Below are positions 502 to 42,793 of a DNA stretch of 64,000 nt, in pieces (positions within the stretch are counted from its first letter, which is position 1; every line of letters starts with the position of its first letter). The position numbers and the translations under genes are program-made. This DNA comes from Arthrobacter sp. StoSoilB19 (GTDB lineage: Bacteria; Actinomycetota; Actinomycetes; Actinomycetales; Micrococcaceae). The stretch lies in the NCBI RefSeq assembly GCF_019977275.1, contig NZ_AP024650.1:2728001-2792000 (forward strand), given 5' to 3'. The notes beneath the pieces were generated by a model. The model was given only the letters and a program-made list of their open reading frames with translations. It had not been told where the DNA came from and searched no databases.

Positions 502-3500
502 ATGACTTTTCATATCTCCTATCCCGCCGAGCTGCCGGTTTCCGAGCGCCGCGAGGACTTGATGGCCGCGATCGCGGCCAACCAGGTGACCATCATCGCC
601 GGCGAGACCGGCTCCGGAAAGACCACCCAGATCCCCAAGATGTGCCTGGAACTTGGCCTGGGCGAGAAGGGACTGATCGGCCACACGCAGCCCCGGCGGC
701 TGGCAGCCCGGACCGTGGCCGAGCGCATTGCGGAAGAGCTTGGCGTGGACATCGGCCAGGAGGTGGGCTTCCAGGTCCGTTTCACCGGTGAGGTAAGCAA
801 GGCAACCAAGGTCAAGCTGATGACCGACGGCATCCTGCTTGCCGAGATCCAGCGGGACAGACTGCTGCGCAGGTACAGCACCATCATCATTGACGAGGCA
901 CACGAACGAAGCCTCAACATCGACTTCATCCTGGGCTACCTCAAGCGGATCCTGCCGCAGCGGCCGGACCTGAAGGTGATCATCACCTCAGCCACCATCG
1001 ACCCGGAACGGTTCGCCCACCACTTCGGGACCCCGGTACAACCCGCTCCCATCGTCGAAGTCTCCGGCCGGACCTATCCGGTGGAAATCCGCTACCGGCC
1101 GCTGTCCCAGCCCAAGGCCGACGACGACGACCCCTCGGACGATGAACTCGAGGAGGACCGCGATCCCCTGGATGCCGTCTGCGATGCGGTGGACGAGCTC
1201 GCGGCGGAAGCGCCCGGTGACATCCTGGTCTTCTTCTCCGGCGAGCGGGAGATCCGCGACGCCGCGGACGCACTCCAGGCCCGGATCCAGTCCAACCGAA
1301 GGCTGTCCAACACCGAGATCCTTCCCCTGTTCGCGCGCCTGAGCCTGCAGGAGCAGCACAAGGTATTCCACCCCGGCAGCAAGCGCCGGATCGTGCTTGC
1401 CACCAACGTGGCGGAAACGTCACTCACGGTGCCGGGCATCAAGTACGTCATCGACACGGGCACGGCCCGCATCTCCCGGTATTCGCACCGCACCAAGGTC
1501 CAGCGCCTGCCCATCGAACGCGTCTCGCAGGCATCGGCCAACCAGCGCTCCGGCCGCTGCGGCCGGGTGTCTGACGGCATCGCCATCCGGCTCTACTCGG
1601 AGGAGGACTACGAGTCCCGGCCCCGGTTCACGGATCCGGAGATCCTGCGCACCAACCTCGCCGCCGTCATCCTCCAGATGACCGCCATGGGCGTGGCAAA
1701 GGGCCCCAAGGACGTTGAGGAGTTCCCCTTTGTCGAGCCGCCGGAAACGCGGGCCATCAACGACGGCGTTACCCTCCTTCGCGAGCTCGGCGCCCTGGCT
1801 CCCCCACGCCCGCAAGACAACGGCGGTAAGCCCGGGGCAGGCGGCGGCCTCACCGCCGTCGGACAGAAACTCGCCCAGCTGCCCGTCGATCCCCGCCTGG
1901 GCCGAATGATCGTGGAGGCCGGAAAACGCGGCTGCGTCCGCGAAGTCATGGTCCTGGCGGCCGCGCTGACCATTCAGGACCCCCGCGAACGGCCCACAGA
2001 CAAGCAGCAGCTGGCCGCGGAAAAGCACAACCGCTTCCGGGACGAAAACTCGGACTTCACCGGCTACCTCAACCTCTGGAACTACCTGCAGGAGAAACAG
2101 CAGGAACTGTCCTCGTCGGCCTTCCGCCGGTTGTGCCGGGCCGAATTCATCAACTACCTGCGGGTTCGCGAGTGGCAGGACCTCTTCGCGCAGTTGCGCC
2201 AGCTTGCGCGGCCGCTGGGGATCGCCCTGGACAACAAGCGCCTGGCCGATCCCGTGGGCAACCATGACGGGATCCACATCAGCCTGCTGTCCGGGCTTCT
2301 GAGCCACATCGGAATCCTGGATGAGCGCAAGCGCGAGTATGCAGGTGCCCGCGGCAGCCGGTTCGCGATCTTCCCCGGATCCGCGCTGTTCAAGAAATCC
2401 CCCACGTTCGTCATGGCAGCGGAGCTGGTGGAAACCAGCCGCCTGTGGGCCAGGGTGGCGGCCAAATTCGATCCCCTGTGGGCCGAGCAGGTGGCACCGG
2501 ACCTGGTGAAGCGCACCTACAGTGAACCGCACTGGTCCACGCGGCAGGGCGCGGTCATGGCCTACGAAAAAGTCACCCTTTATGGCGTTCCCATCATTGC
2601 CCAGCGGCGGATTAACTACGGCAGGGTGGATCCGGTCGTGGCCCGGGAGCTGTTCATCCGGCATGCCCTGGTGGAGGGTGACTGGAAGACCCACCACAAG
2701 TTCTTCCACCGCAACCGGGCGCTCCTGCATGAGGTGGAGGAACTCGAGGCACGCATGCGCCGCCGCGACCTGTTGGTGGATGACGAGACGCTGTTCGAGT
2801 TCTATGACGCCAGGATCGGCCCCGACGTGGTTTCCGAACGGCACTTCGATAAATGGTGGAAGGATGCCCGCCGGGAGAATCCGGACCTCCTGGACTACGA
2901 CAAATCGCTGCTCCTCAGTGACGACGCCGATGACCTGGATGAATCGGCCTACCCCAAGACCTGGTTGCACAAGGGCTTCGAGCTTCCGCTGACGTACGAG
3001 TTCCACCCCGTGGCTCCTGGTTCACCGCCCAACCCGTCCGACGGCGTCACGGCCGAAGTTCCCGTCCTGTTCCTCAACCAGCTGGACGATGCCCCGTTCC
3101 GCTGGCTGATCCCCGGCCAGCGCGTGGAGCTGGTGACCGCGTTGATCAAGTCGCTGCCCAAGCAGGTCCGCAAGAACTTCGTTCCTGCCCCCGATGTTGC
3201 CCGGCAGGCGGTGGCGGTCCTCGAAGCGGACTTCGATCCTGCCCGGGATGAGCTGGAGCCGTCGCTGGAACTCGCGCTGCGGCGGATCCGCGGCGCCATC
3301 ATCCCGCCCGGTTCCTGGAACTGGGACGCCGTGCCTGCGCACCTGCGCGTGAGTTTCAAGGTGGTGGACAGCGGCGGCAAGGTGCTGGGCGAAGGAAAGG
3401 ACCTGGCCGAACTGCAGGAGAGGCTGGCTCCTGCCACCCGGCGCGCGATTGCAGACTCGCTCGGCGCCACACCGGCCTCCACTGCGCCCGGCGCCGGCGG

Positions 3501-27706: not shown

Positions 27707-27744
27707 CGACGCCGGACACCTCCCAAGGCAGGTGCCCGGCGTCG
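27707..27744 (+). terminator. Rho-independent terminator of aroA-rsgA-hisN
   Basis: The near-perfect 15-bp stem (CGACGCCGGACACCT with its complement, one mismatch) has an 8-base loop and is followed by TTTATT. It starts 33 bp after the hisN stop. Confidence 0.85.
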
Positions 27745-27825: not shown

Positions 27826-27950
27826 AGGTCACGAGTGCCAGCGCAAAACCCCGGTTTGCTGGCCGGCAACCCTCCATTCGCGGTGGGGTGCCCCGGGTGA
27901 CGACCAGGCCGGTCCGGAGCGGATGCGGCAAGCGCGGATTCCACTATGCC
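27826..27950 (+). ncRNA. SAM-IV-type S-adenosylmethionine riboswitch
   Basis: The leader closes with a P1 helix of GGTC (27827-27830) and GACC (near 27902). It contains the SAM-I/IV-like core: AGTGCCAGCG, a GCCAGC/GCTGGC hairpin, CCGGCAACCC and GGTGGGGTGCCCCGGGTGA. A GC-rich 3' part follows that can form the extra SAM-IV pseudoknot. The pattern agrees with the actinobacterial SAM-IV class as I remember it. It lies directly before the class V aminotransferase GTG and presumably turns the gene down when SAM is plentiful. Confidence 0.8.
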
Positions 27951-27976
27951 GGAGTCCTGTACCAAGTGAGGTCTCT

Positions 27977-29395
27977 GTGACAACTGCCACCGTCTCCCCC
28001 CAGCCCGTCATTGCCGAAGCTGCCGTCCCCCAAGCACGCCACGCCGCAGCCGGCCGGCCGCTCGCTGCCGTCACCGGCGCCGAAATCCAGGCGCCCCTGA
28101 TTTCAGGCGGCCACGTGCGGTACGCCAACCTCGATTACGGCGCCTCCGCCCCGGCACTGTCCGTAGTATCGGCTTACCTGAATGAGATCCTCCCCTACTA
28201 CGCCAGCGTCCACCGCGGGGCAGGATACGCATCCCAGATCAGCACCTCCGTGTACGAGAACGCGCGCAGCATCGTCAGGGATTTCGTGGGCGGCCGCCCG
28301 GATGATTCGGTCATCTTCACCCGCAACACGACGGATTCGCTGAACCTGCTGGCCGGCTGCCTTCCCGTGACCGATGGCCGCCACGACGGCGAAGTGCTGT
28401 ACCTGGACATCGAACACCACGCCAATCTCCTGCCGTGGCAGGGCGTCCCGCACCGCAGCATCGTCGCCGCCGACACCATCACCGGCACCCTTGAGGCCGT
28501 ACGTGCCGAGCTTGGACAGGGCGGTGTCAGCTTGGTCGCGGTCACCGGGGCCTCCAACGTGACCGGCGAAATCCTCCCCATCCGGGCGCTGGCCGCGCTG
28601 GCCCACGAACATGGCGCACGGATCGTGGTGGATGCGGCCCAGCTCGCGCCGCACCGCCGCATAGACATCAGCGCGGATGACGTCGACTACCTCGCCTTCT
28701 CAGGCCACAAGCTGTACGCGCCCTTCGGCGCCGGCGTCCTGGTGGGGCGCCCGGACTGGCTGGACGCCGGCGTCCCGCACCTCGCCGGCGGCGGCGCCGT
28801 CAAGGAAGCCAGGCTCGACGGCGTCAGCTGGGCCACCGGCCCGGCCCGCCATGAGGGGGGCTCGCCGAACGTCCTGGGGGCCGCCACGCTGGCCCGCGCC
28901 ACCCAGGTCATTGCCGGCCTGGACCAGGAACGCTGGCACGCCCACGAGTCCGCCATCCGCTCCTTCCTGGTGGAGGGACTCCAGCGGATCGACGGCGTCA
29001 CGGTTCACCAGATCTTCAAGGACACCAACCCCGAAACGGACACCATCGGGGTGGTCAACTTCTCCGTCGAGGGTTACGACGCAGGACTGGTGGCGGCGTA
29101 CCTTTCGGCAGAGCATGGCGTGGGCCTGCGTGACGGGCGCTTCTGCGCCCATCCCCTGCTGAAGCGCCTGGGCCTGCCGTCCGGTTCCCTCCGCGCCAGC
29201 TTCGGCGTCGGTTCGCGCCTGGAAGATGCCGAGCGCCTGCTGGCCGGCATCCAGGCGCTCCGGAGCAACGGGCTGGGCTGGGACTACGTGGTGGACGCAG
29301 GCCGCTGGGTCCCTGCCAACGACACCCGCACCTACCCGCACTGGGCGCCCAACACCCCTGGAACAGCCGGCGCAGCGCCCTGCATCGACGACTGA
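27977..29395 (+). CDS. Class V aminotransferase-fold PLP enzyme (cysteine desulfurase-like)
   Basis: The 472-residue fold-type I enzyme has the PLP lysine at Lys245 in SGHKLYAPFG, the preceding DAAQLAPHRRID, and VHRGAGYAS near the start. These are features of the NifS/SufS/CsdA-like group. The GTG at 27977 follows GTGAGG. The SAM riboswitch in its leader indicates a role in methionine, cysteine or other sulfur metabolism. The exact reaction (desulfuration, C-S lyase or transamination) cannot be decided. Cytoplasmic. Confidence 0.88.
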   Translation: MTTATVSPQPVIAEAAVPQARHAAAGRPLAAVTGAEIQAPLISGGHVRYANLDYGASAPALSVVSAYLNEILPYYASVHRGAGYASQISTSVYENARSIVRDFVGGRPDDSVIFTRNTTDSLNLLAGCLPVTDGRHDGEVLYLDIEHHANLLPWQGVPHRSIVAADTITGTLEAVRAELGQGGVSLVAVTGASNVTGEILPIRALAALAHEHGARIVVDAAQLAPHRRIDISADDVDYLAFSGHKLYAPFGAGVLVGRPDWLDAGVPHLAGGGAVKEARLDGVSWATGPARHEGGSPNVLGAATLARATQVIAGLDQERWHAHESAIRSFLVEGLQRIDGVTVHQIFKDTNPETDTIGVVNFSVEGYDAGLVAAYLSAEHGVGLRDGRFCAHPLLKRLGLPSGSLRASFGVGSRLEDAERLLAGIQALRSNGLGWDYVVDAGRWVPANDTRTYPHWAPNTPGTAGAAPCIDD

Positions 29396-29497: not shown

Positions 29498-30256
29498 GTG
29501 GTTCGGGGTGGCCCCAAGCTTGATCACGGGCGGCGCAGGGAACTGGGCCGGAGCTTCCAGGACGGCGGCAGGCACTACCAGCGCGTCCGGCCCGGCTACC
29601 CTGAGGAGTCCGCCCGGTGGCTGGTGCCCGCCGACGCCCATGAAGCCCTCGACGTTGGTGCCGGTACCGGAAAGTTCACCGCGCTGCTGCTGGACATGGG
29701 GCTGGACGTCACGGCCGTGGACCCCTCGGCGGACATGCTCGCCCAGCTCACGGAACACTACCCGGCTGCCACGGCGATGCCGGGGACTGCCGAGGCGACA
29801 GGCCTGCCCGACGCCAGCTTCGACGTCGTCACCGTAGCCCAGGCGTGGCACTGGTGCGACGCCCTGGCGGCAAGCACCGAACTGGCCCGCGTGCTGCGCC
29901 CGCACGGAACCCTCGGCCTGGTGTGGAACCAGCTGGACACCTCAGTGCCCTGGGTGCACCGGCTCTCCCGGATCATGCACGCAGGCGACGTCTACCGGCC
30001 GGGGCACAAGCCCGTCATCGGCCCGGAGTTCCAGGGGCTCGAAGGGCATGTCACCCACTGGCAGGACACAGTGGACACCACGGACCTGATGGAACTCACT
30101 AAATCCCGCAGCTACTACCTCCGGGCCGGCGAGTCAACGCGGGCCAAGGTCCTGGCCAACCTGGACTGGTACCTGCACGAACACCTTGCCTACACCCCTG
30201 ACCAGGAAATCGACCTTCCCTACCTCACCCTGGCTTGGCGGGCCGTCAAGGCATGA
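29498..30256 (+). CDS. Class I SAM-dependent methyltransferase
   Basis: The 252-residue Rossmann methyltransferase has motif I DVGAGTGKFT (about 52-61), the acidic motif II residue in VTAVDPSADM and the post-motif VAQAWHWCD. The GTG start has an AAGGAGG site. It belongs to the UbiE/Coq5-like group, substrate unknown. It lies about 100 bp after the riboswitch-controlled aminotransferase and may share its transcript, which would place a SAM user under SAM control. Confidence 0.9.
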   Translation: MVRGGPKLDHGRRRELGRSFQDGGRHYQRVRPGYPEESARWLVPADAHEALDVGAGTGKFTALLLDMGLDVTAVDPSADMLAQLTEHYPAATAMPGTAEATGLPDASFDVVTVAQAWHWCDALAASTELARVLRPHGTLGLVWNQLDTSVPWVHRLSRIMHAGDVYRPGHKPVIGPEFQGLEGHVTHWQDTVDTTDLMELTKSRSYYLRAGESTRAKVLANLDWYLHEHLAYTPDQEIDLPYLTLAWRAVKA

Positions 30257-42416: not shown

Positions 42417-42425
42417 TTACCCGTG

Positions 42426-42793
42426 GGTGGAGATGGGGGGAATTGAACCCCCGTCCGATGTCGTGTTGTCAGGGCTTCTCCGGGCGCAGTTTGCGTCGGA
42501 TTTTCTCGGCCCCAGCCATGCTGCAAACAGCTGGCTGATCCGGGCCCAGTCATCTAAAAGTCCCGTTTACTCCGATGACGGGAGCAAACAGCAGTGGCTA
42601 TCTAAATGACGCCAGGATCCGGGGCGATAGCAACCCCGGGCTGACGGACTGTCTTACTGCTTAGGCAGCAAGAGCGAAGTCAGTGCGCTTAGATTCGGCA
42701 CTTATTGGTTTGCAGAAAGCGTTTACGAGATAATTCTGCATCCTCGGCCCGCTTCACCTGTCGCGACTAACACCGTCGAAACCGATCATCCCC
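42426..42793 (-). ncRNA. ssrA: tmRNA (transfer-messenger RNA)
   Basis: The minus strand starts GGGGATGATCGGTTTCGACG and ends with the T-arm GGGGGTTCAATTCCCCCC and CATCTCCACC, so the acceptor stem GGGGAUG pairs with CAUCUCC. The tag frame (42699 to 42661) begins at resume codon GCC after AAGT and encodes AESKRTDFALAA before TAA. The genome shows ACC then C at the 3' end, so a full CCA is probably added enzymatically. About 368 nt, normal for actinobacteria. It rescues stalled ribosomes with SmpB, encoded just upstream in the same direction. Confidence 0.96.

What the first reader, a model, noticed from the sequence alone, without database searches (positions are those of the whole stretch)
27826..29395. 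SAM-IV-type riboswitch in front of a class V aminotransferase, followed by a methyltransferase
The leader has the SAM-I/IV core and GGTC/GACC closing helix. The controlled gene is not a known methionine-synthesis gene but a cysteine desulfurase-like PLP enzyme of unsettled function. A SAM-dependent methyltransferase is only about 100 bp downstream. The control by SAM predicts a role in sulfur-amino-acid metabolism and narrows the possible functions of this enzyme family.
Basis: partly seen in the sequence, partly recalled or inferred. Interest (0 to 1): 0.52.

Follow-up and report, generated by a model that had tools for sequence, protein, structure and literature searches.

The report
SAM-switched cysteine desulfurase for methionine
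A soil actinobacterium carries a genuine RNA switch for S-adenosylmethionine in front of an enzyme that probably pulls sulfur off cysteine; its genomic company suggests that this sulfur goes into methionine synthesis rather than into iron-sulfur clusters.

Summary
The riboswitch is real: Rfam's SAM-IV model scores 113.1 bits (cut-off 38) at 27827-27940. The gene behind it (27977-29395) is closest to type II cysteine desulfurases (SufS). It keeps the PLP lysine, catalytic cysteine and substrate residues, but forms its own clade and lacks the zinc-binding histidine and three other residues by which SufS docks SufU. SAM-IV precedes the gene in 42 of 42 gene-bearing Micrococcaceae genomes, 75 of 80 named loci and 38 of 40 further upstream regions, and in 0 of 16 SufS loci. 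The genome's other SAM-IV copies precede metY, metX and a DUF1737-rhodanese-metZ operon. Of 149 Micrococcaceae genomes, 44 have that rhodanese or the desulfurase; 40 have both. In 5 of 5 Cellulomonas/Myceligenerans loci rhodanese and metZ lie beside the desulfurase. Best reading: SAM shuts off a dedicated desulfurase that passes cysteine sulfur, here via the rhodanese, to homocysteine. Reaction and acceptor are inferred. Sampled MetM hosts lack the rhodanese; Microbacteriaceae lack SAM-IV and show organosulfur-oxidation neighbours, so scavenging remains a rival. The methyltransferase is only a Micrococcaceae neighbour. The SAM-IV/desulfurase pairing is in print for Streptomyces; my searches found no function.

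The parts
27707..27744 (.). 15-pair inverted repeat between the upstream gene (ends 27674) and the riboswitch; terminator-like, would make the riboswitch gene its own transcription unit
   Evidence: pattern match; 2 found in the region, 1.2 expected in shuffles, so weak on its own
27827..27940 (+). SAM-IV riboswitch aptamer: P1 27827-27830/27902-27905, P2, P3, two pseudoknots
   Evidence: 113.1 bits, RF00634
27936..27957 (+). predicted switching hairpin GGATTCC/GGAGTCC; its 5' arm overlaps the 3' strand of pseudoknot 2, its 3' arm could pair with GGTCTC over the ribosome-binding site
   Evidence: inference
27968..27971 (+). Shine-Dalgarno-like GAGG, 5 nt before the GTG start
   Evidence: by reading
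27977..29395 (+). SufS-like type II cysteine desulfurase (472 aa); PLP lysine K245, catalytic C390, R406
29498..30256 (+). class I SAM-dependent methyltransferase (252 aa); neighbour, not judged part of the system

Best explanation
A SAM-IV riboswitch controls a dedicated type II cysteine desulfurase. When SAM is scarce the gene is expressed; the enzyme takes sulfur from cysteine as a persulfide on C390 and passes it, not through SufU, towards homocysteine. In this genome the likely acceptor is the small rhodanese encoded between DUF1737 and metZ under another SAM-IV switch, which would hand the sulfur to MetZ; in hosts with MetM it would be the MetO sulfur-carrier route instead. When SAM is plentiful the aptamer and its second pseudoknot form, the downstream hairpin is lost, its freed 3' arm masks the ribosome-binding site, and synthesis stops. 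Shown: the aptamer, its conservation with this gene, the conserved catalytic residues, the loss of the main SufU contacts, the shared SAM-IV control and the co-occurrence and adjacency with rhodanese-metZ. Inferred: the reaction, the acceptor, the direction of control and the masking mechanism.
For: SAM-IV precedes the gene in 42/42 gene-bearing genomes of 149 Micrococcaceae, 75/80 named loci, 27/27 further class loci and 38/40 sampled upstream regions, against 0/16 SufS loci. In 64 SAM-IV loci, the four of this genome and the best-scoring ones of two searches, the next gene is MetY 38 times, this gene 23, MetX 2, DUF1737 1. In this genome that DUF1737 is followed by a rhodanese with a CRSGQRS loop and MetZ with gaps of one base or overlaps (MetZ over its TIGR01325 cut-off). 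Rhodanese and desulfurase: both 40, desulfurase only 2, rhodanese only 2, neither 105 of 149 Micrococcaceae; pooled within the two genera that hold both states (g8, g31) 3/1/0/10, p 0.011. Rhodanese and MetZ stand divergent from the desulfurase in 5/5 Cellulomonas/Myceligenerans loci, MetZ 0.9-1.5 kb away, and rhodanese lies 2.8-7.4 kb from it in G276, G286, G395, G459 and G503 (coordinates). 47/47 orthologues keep K245, C390, H147, H148, D219, Q222, H244; 46/47 R406. Best PDB folds are SufS. MetM loci carry an S-box in 7/7 and a ThiS-like carrier beside MetM in 6/7. csd is a conserved MetJ target in Vibrionales (PMC4239095, passages).
Against: No enzyme assay or expression data here. Class-wide the rhodanese link is looser: of 80 further genomes it is in 14 of 24 with the gene and no MetM, 0 of 22 with gene and MetM, and 13 of 34 with neither gene nor MetM, all 13 in one genus, g49. 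129 MetM-positive genomes lack the gene, and 148/149 Micrococcaceae have SAM-IV while 42 have the gene, so the step is accessory. No metM, metO or metX lies in the flanks of the 80 named loci; a MetY-like gene is in L194, over 3 kb away. Microbacteriaceae orthologues have no SAM-IV and lie near FMN-dependent organosulfur oxidation genes; G303 and G162 also lack it. Two SufS contacts to SufU, Arg368 and Gly370, are kept. Whole-leader folding energy is no better than shuffles (z 0.56).
Confidence: 0.58

Rival explanations
1. The enzyme belongs to organosulfur scavenging: it works on cysteine or a cysteine derivative arising from FMN-dependent oxidation of sulfur compounds, and SAM-IV reads sulfur starvation.
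For: Without SAM-IV, in Microbacteriaceae, the gene adjoins an NtaA/DmoA monooxygenase (L192 directly downstream, L234, L235), an MsuE-type FMN reductase (L192 and L222 by model, L238 by similarity) or a KPN_01854-01858-type cluster (L237 by model, L236 by similarity). In L091 a divergent gene with its own SAM-IV is an MsnO8-family LLM oxidoreductase. In Rhodococcus-type loci a short protein follows the gene; the one tested (L195) has weak similarity to the NtaA/DmoA C-terminus.
Against: Relatives of these MsuE, NtaA, MsnO8 and KPN proteins are in 0 of 37 Micrococcaceae flanks and, among 38 other non-Microbacteriaceae flanks, only one MsnO8-like (over 3 kb away) and three binding-protein-like ones (over 3 kb away) were seen. 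Scavenging and homocysteine supply may also be one pathway.
Confidence: 0.17
2. A different PLP reaction on a sulfur amino acid: selenocysteine lyase, cysteine-sulfinate desulfinase, a C-S lyase or a true transaminase, for example of methionine salvage.
For: The SufS HHC motif is replaced by F-C-A-H in 47/47, and H292 and H392 are invariant here but not in SufS; TIGR01979 scores 275.5 against a cut-off of 475.1.
Against: The desulfurase cysteine is invariant, which a transaminase would not need; a persulfide-handling rhodanese fits a desulfurase best.
Confidence: 0.13
3. A second desulfurase for iron-sulfur clusters or thio-cofactors (thiamine, lipoate, tRNA), as the S. lividans label 'thiamine metabolism' suggests.
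For: Same fold and catalytic residues as SufS; Arg368 and Gly370 contacts kept.
Against: Each of 16 gene-positive genomes checked also has a SufS over the curated cut-off. His352, His354, Asp355 and His371 of M. tuberculosis SufS (PMC10216065) are kept by 15, 15, 15 and 14 of 15 SufS but His at the His354 column is in 0/47 orthologues. SAM control fits poorly.
Confidence: 0.08
4. Riboswitch, desulfurase and downstream methyltransferase form one functional unit.
For: 102 nt spacing, same strand.
Against: Neighbour only in Micrococcaceae (37/37 there, 0/43 elsewhere); a gene lies between them in L159.
Confidence: 0.03

Closest known systems
SAM-IV riboswitch (RF00634)
   Same: Full-length model match over the cut-off, same helices and two pseudoknots
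   Different: Printed targets in Actinomycetales are given as metXY (PMC4239095); here the target is a desulfurase
SufS, type II cysteine desulfurase of the SUF system
   Same: Fold, PLP lysine, catalytic cysteine, substrate-binding residues
   Different: Separate clade (100/100 support); under the SufS score cut-off; zinc-binding His354 and three other SufU contacts lost; FCAH instead of HHCA; not with suf genes
SLIV_26975 (S. lividans) and CRV15_21540 (S. clavuligerus)
   Same: SAM-IV in front of a gene called cysteine desulfurase / class V-fold PLP enzyme (PMC8079986, PMC8269248; passages)
   Different: Annotation and RNA-seq findings; no function tested in the passages seen. Orthology to the window gene is inferred, not tested on those two sequences
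MetM/MetO homocysteine route (Hasebe et al. 2024)
   Same: SAM-riboswitch control; needs a sulfur source for its carrier
   Different: Homocysteine synthase rather than sulfur mobiliser; MetM not found in this genome. Paper not held; known from PMC12172450 passages and recall
csd in the MetJ regulon of Vibrionales
   Same: Cysteine desulfurase under methionine/SAM control (PMC4239095)
   Different: Protein repressor, other phylum; sequence relation not tested

Membership tests
SAM-IV riboswitch | Match to RF00634 above gathering score over the full model | tested here: met
   113.1 bits vs 38, positions 1-116
SAM-IV riboswitch | P1-P3 and two pseudoknots kept with compensatory change | tested here: met
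   98.1% of cells paired, 12 pairs changed on both sides; pseudoknot 1 100%, pseudoknot 2 88.1%; the 27 sequences include the four of this genome
SAM-IV riboswitch | Binds SAM and not SAH; changes gene expression | not testable with these tools
   needs in-line probing and a reporter
Type II cysteine desulfurase | PLP lysine, catalytic cysteine, substrate His/Asp/Gln/Arg | tested here: met
   47/47 for K245, C390, H147, H148, D219, Q222; 46/47 for R406
Type II cysteine desulfurase | Cysteine to alanine plus persulfide | not testable with these tools
   no assay
SufS proper | TIGR01979 curated cut-off | tested here: not met
   275.5 vs 475.1 bits
SufS proper | SufU contacts His352, His354, Asp355, His371 (Mtb numbers) | tested here: not met
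   columns 368/370/371/388: His in 1/47 at 368, 0/47 at 370, 0/47 at 388; at 371 the seven residues printed leave room for at most one Asp
SufS proper | SufU contacts Arg368 and Gly370 (Mtb numbers) | tested here: met
   R385 and G387 invariant
SufS proper | Lies in the suf operon | tested here: not met
   the SufS of this genome is at 1378856-1380106, this gene at 2755977; window neighbours judged by reading
MetM/MetO pathway | MetM present in the genome | tested here: not met
   no match at E<=1e-80 in G000

The most novel reading that the evidence does not exclude
Actinobacteria have a cysteine-to-homocysteine sulfur relay that bypasses cystathionine: a SufU-independent desulfurase passes persulfide sulfur to a small rhodanese that hands it to MetZ, or in other hosts to the MetO carrier for MetM, with donor and synthase both shut off by SAM riboswitches.
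Probability: 0.42. Interest if true: 0.7.

Novelty: new variant of a known kind. Interest (0 to 1): 0.57.

Why it matters
It gives a testable function to a widespread enzyme (146 of 394 class genomes) usually labelled only 'aminotransferase class V-fold', names a candidate sulfur acceptor (the metZ-linked rhodanese), and offers a candidate for an open point of the MetM/MetO route: which enzyme supplies the carrier with sulfur. If true, sulfur can move from cysteine to homocysteine without cystathionine, and a desulfurase clade was split off from iron-sulfur assembly for amino-acid synthesis.

Tried and rejected
Methyltransferase as partner: rejected on synteny. Iron-sulfur role: made unlikely by the lost SufU contacts. 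Homocysteine synthase in its own right: unlikely, since the gene co-exists with MetX/MetY and with MetM. A known RNA family upstream of the Microbacteriaceae orthologues: none over its cut-off in six loci, and no SAM-IV by my model in ten (best E 0.54). Whole-leader folding energy: no signal. The first covariance model used an automatic structure without P1; replaced by R2. One search was translated one base out of frame, corrected. The first gene finder misplaced some frames in high-GC loci and missed metZ and the rhodanese; a codon-usage finder was used for the counts. In one search the pattern took a wrong ribosome-binding site in several leaders (for example L159, L154): median z -1.28, 37 of 59 below -1, 2 of 61 without a start. 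The step-wise change GGATTCC/GGAGTCC/GGTCTC to GGATCCC/GGGGTCC/GGTCCC has exceptions (L169, L178 keep GGATT with GGGGTCC), and other subgroups do not show this exact pattern.

Rows left out: of 16 SufS loci L132 gave no hit at the blast cut-off and is not among the 15. The orthologue alignment holds 46 chosen loci plus the window protein. Searches took 37 of the roughly 117 class hits without a locus, chosen by hand for spread, plus three Micrococcaceae. MetX and MetY were searched in 52 of 146 gene-positive genomes (27 without MetM, 25 of 119 with it). One search took 80 chosen genomes: 24 gene without MetM, 22 gene with MetM, 34 with neither.

Full report
The observation. cmscan of the 64-kb window finds SAM-IV (RF00634) at 27827-27940 on the + strand, 113.1 bits against a gathering score of 38. 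On 27 SAM-IV sequences the structure with both pseudoknots pairs in 98.1% of cells, with 12 pairs changed on both sides (shuffled mean 2.2). The gene most likely starts at GTG 27977 and ends at 29395. The methyltransferase ORF starts 102 nt further on.

The genome. The window lies in a 4.37-Mb single-contig genome with four SAM-IV copies: before metY and metX, side by side; before a DUF1737-like ORF, a rhodanese and metZ with gaps of one base or overlaps (L006:4869-6730); and before this gene. MetZ is over the TIGR01325 cut-off (597.6 vs 510.05 bits) and MetY over that of TIGR01326; MetX matches TIGR01392 at E 4e-127, under its cut-off as in all genomes tried. DUF1737 is named here by likeness to a Cellulomonas protein that Pfam confirms. 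Nearest named loci are Arthrobacter and Pseudarthrobacter, so the host is inferred to be one of these.

The enzyme. NCBIfam's best match is the SufS subfamily, 275.5 bits, under its cut-off of 475.1. The nearest solved sequences are cysteine desulfurases. A model from 23 orthologues (mean pLDDT 86) matches SufS structures best, first the M. tuberculosis SufS-SufU complex. In 47 orthologues the PLP lysine and catalytic cysteine are invariant. The family is cut off from 15 SufS proteins with 100/100 support, and each of 16 gene-positive genomes checked also has a true SufS. M. tuberculosis SufS needs His354 to bind the zinc of SufU; His352, His354, Asp355 and His371 are described as strictly conserved hydrogen-bond contacts, Arg368 and Gly370 as other strictly conserved contacts (PMC10216065, passages). 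Counting back from the catalytic cysteine, the first four fall on columns 368, 370, 371 and 388 of the window protein: SufS keeps them in 15, 15, 15 and 14 of 15, while the family has His in 1, 0 and 0 of 47 at 368, 370 and 388. Arg368 and Gly370 (R385, G387) are kept. So catalysis looks intact while the zinc-binding contact is gone. A C-terminal cysteine (C469) is in 68% of the alignment; a relay role for it is speculation.

Conservation of the pair. Of 149 Micrococcaceae genomes 42 have the gene and 148 have SAM-IV. All 42 genes have SAM-IV just upstream: 30 by model search, 3 by fetched upstream DNA, 9 by comparing the coordinates listed. Of 80 named loci 75 have it; the five without (L191, L192, L193, L194, L222) are, by record title, Microbacteriaceae genera. 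A further 27 of 27 class loci have it, as do 13 of 14 gene-bearing loci from the SufS search (several repeat earlier loci), and 0 of 16 SufS loci. Of 40 more upstream regions 38 have it; the two without, G303 and G162, are also not among the 262 SAM-IV-positive genomes. Ten of the 40 are from genus g64, inferred to be Streptomyces from genome size and number; all ten have it.

Link to metZ. MetZ lies 0.9-1.5 kb away, divergent, in the five Cellulomonas and Myceligenerans loci (L204, L210, L220, L226, L227), at 64-68% identity to MetZ of this genome; two were tested and are over the TIGR01325 cut-off. Between MetZ and the desulfurase all five have a rhodanese (Pfam) with a CRSG.RS loop, and L210 and L220 also have DUF1737 (L210 confirmed by Pfam). 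The rhodanese of this genome has relatives (E<=1e-20) in 42 of 149 Micrococcaceae: 40 share the desulfurase, 2 do not (G037, G106), and 2 have the desulfurase alone (G038, G078); 105 have neither (Fisher p 2e-31, not corrected for kinship). Inside the two genera that hold both states, g8 and g31, the pooled table is 3 both, 1 desulfurase only, 0 rhodanese only, 10 neither (p 0.011; in g8 itself 2, 1, 0, 4). Outside the family the link is looser: of 80 chosen genomes the rhodanese is in 14 of 24 with the gene and no MetM (the ten misses include five Microbacteriaceae-type f4 genomes), 0 of 22 with gene and MetM, and 13 of 34 with neither, all 13 in genus g49. In five of the 14 it lies near the desulfurase on the same contig: G276 (4.4 kb), G286 (2.8 kb), G395 (3.7 kb), G459 (7.4 kb) and G503 (5.0 kb) (coordinates). 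Placement of f4 as Microbacteriaceae is inferred.

MetM hosts. A second threonine-synthase-like gene in seven genomes carries an S-box SAM riboswitch (7 of 7), with a ThiS-like protein ending in GG or GGC beside it in 6 of 7. This fits the MetM/MetO route of Hasebe et al. 2024, known to me from passages of PMC12172450 and recall; the paper is not held. S. lividans has the same two switches, SAM-IV on SLIV_26975 and S-box on SLIV_16930-16925 (PMC8079986, passages); that the latter are metM-metO is my inference. In 394 class genomes the gene is in 146 and MetM in 248: both 119, gene only 27, MetM only 129, neither 119 (odds ratio 4.1, not corrected for kinship). The 27 without MetM all have MetX and an over-cut-off MetY. 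Of 25 sampled with MetM, 10 have MetX at E below 1e-110, two more have weak or partial matches, and 11 have MetY. So all 52 gene-positive genomes examined have MetY or MetM; both are common, so this is consistent rather than decisive.

Evidence for another role. In Microbacteriaceae the gene adjoins NtaA/DmoA monooxygenases, MsuE FMN reductase or a KPN_01854-01858-type uptake and oxidation cluster. In L091 a divergent SAM-IV leads to an MsnO8-family oxidoreductase. Such neighbours were not seen in 37 Micrococcaceae flanks. Sulfur scavenging is therefore a live rival, and may be the same pathway seen from the supply side.

How the switch may act. Only 36 nt separate aptamer and start codon, with no terminator found there. 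A hairpin (27936-27942 with 27951-27957) uses bases that also close pseudoknot 2, and its 3' arm can pair with the ribosome-binding region. In many close relatives GGATTCC/GGAGTCC/GGTCTC changes to GGATCCC/GGGGTCC/GGTCCC in step, with exceptions such as L169 and L178 (read). This suggests a translational off-switch; the statistics are modest (median z -1.28 over 59 leaders). S. clavuligerus shows premature transcript ends instead (PMC8269248, passages), so the mechanism may differ between hosts.

Literature. Searches for SAM-IV with aminotransferase, Streptomyces or desulfurase, for cysteine desulfurase with homocysteine and sulfur carrier (no paper) and related terms turned up the two Streptomyces reports and, in the passages and listings seen, no functional study. 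The rhodanese-metZ link was not searched for in print. The original SAM-IV paper was not held, so its target list is unchecked.

Verdict. A real riboswitch on a real, conserved regulon member; the pairing is already in print, the function is not, as far as I could search. The best reading is a SufU-independent cysteine desulfurase feeding homocysteine synthesis, with a metZ-linked rhodanese as the probable acceptor in this host.

Noticed in passing
window 42425-42793 (-): Complete tmRNA gene, 167.9 bits.
   Followed up: no
L006:4869-6730 (+): DUF1737, rhodanese and metZ in one tight SAM-IV-led operon of the same genome; a rhodanese co-encoded with a homocysteine synthase deserves study of its own.
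   Followed up: partly
L091:1956-2073 (-) and 2175-2291 (+): Two divergent SAM-IV riboswitches; one on this gene, the other on an MsnO8-family LLM oxidoreductase.
   Followed up: partly
L086:1065-1154 (-): An S-box SAM riboswitch divergent from the SAM-IV gene leads to a protein that reads like a 2-oxoglutarate/iron oxygenase (recalled motif; no NCBIfam match).
   Followed up: partly
L177 and L187: Arthrobacter-like loci in records titled Sporosarcina beigongshangi and Acidobacteria MAG (72-74% identity); likely contamination or mislabelling. L187 has the same match coordinates as G029, which the genome set places in this family.
   Followed up: no
L251:2697-2975 (+): MetO-like carrier ends in GGC instead of GG, so it might need trimming before use.
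   Followed up: no
window 27977-29395, residue C469: Cysteine near the C-terminus in a tail such as GAAPC, common in Micrococcaceae orthologues.
   Followed up: partly
genus g49 genomes: 13 of 13 searched have the rhodanese but neither this desulfurase nor MetM, so some hosts use the rhodanese without it.
   Followed up: no
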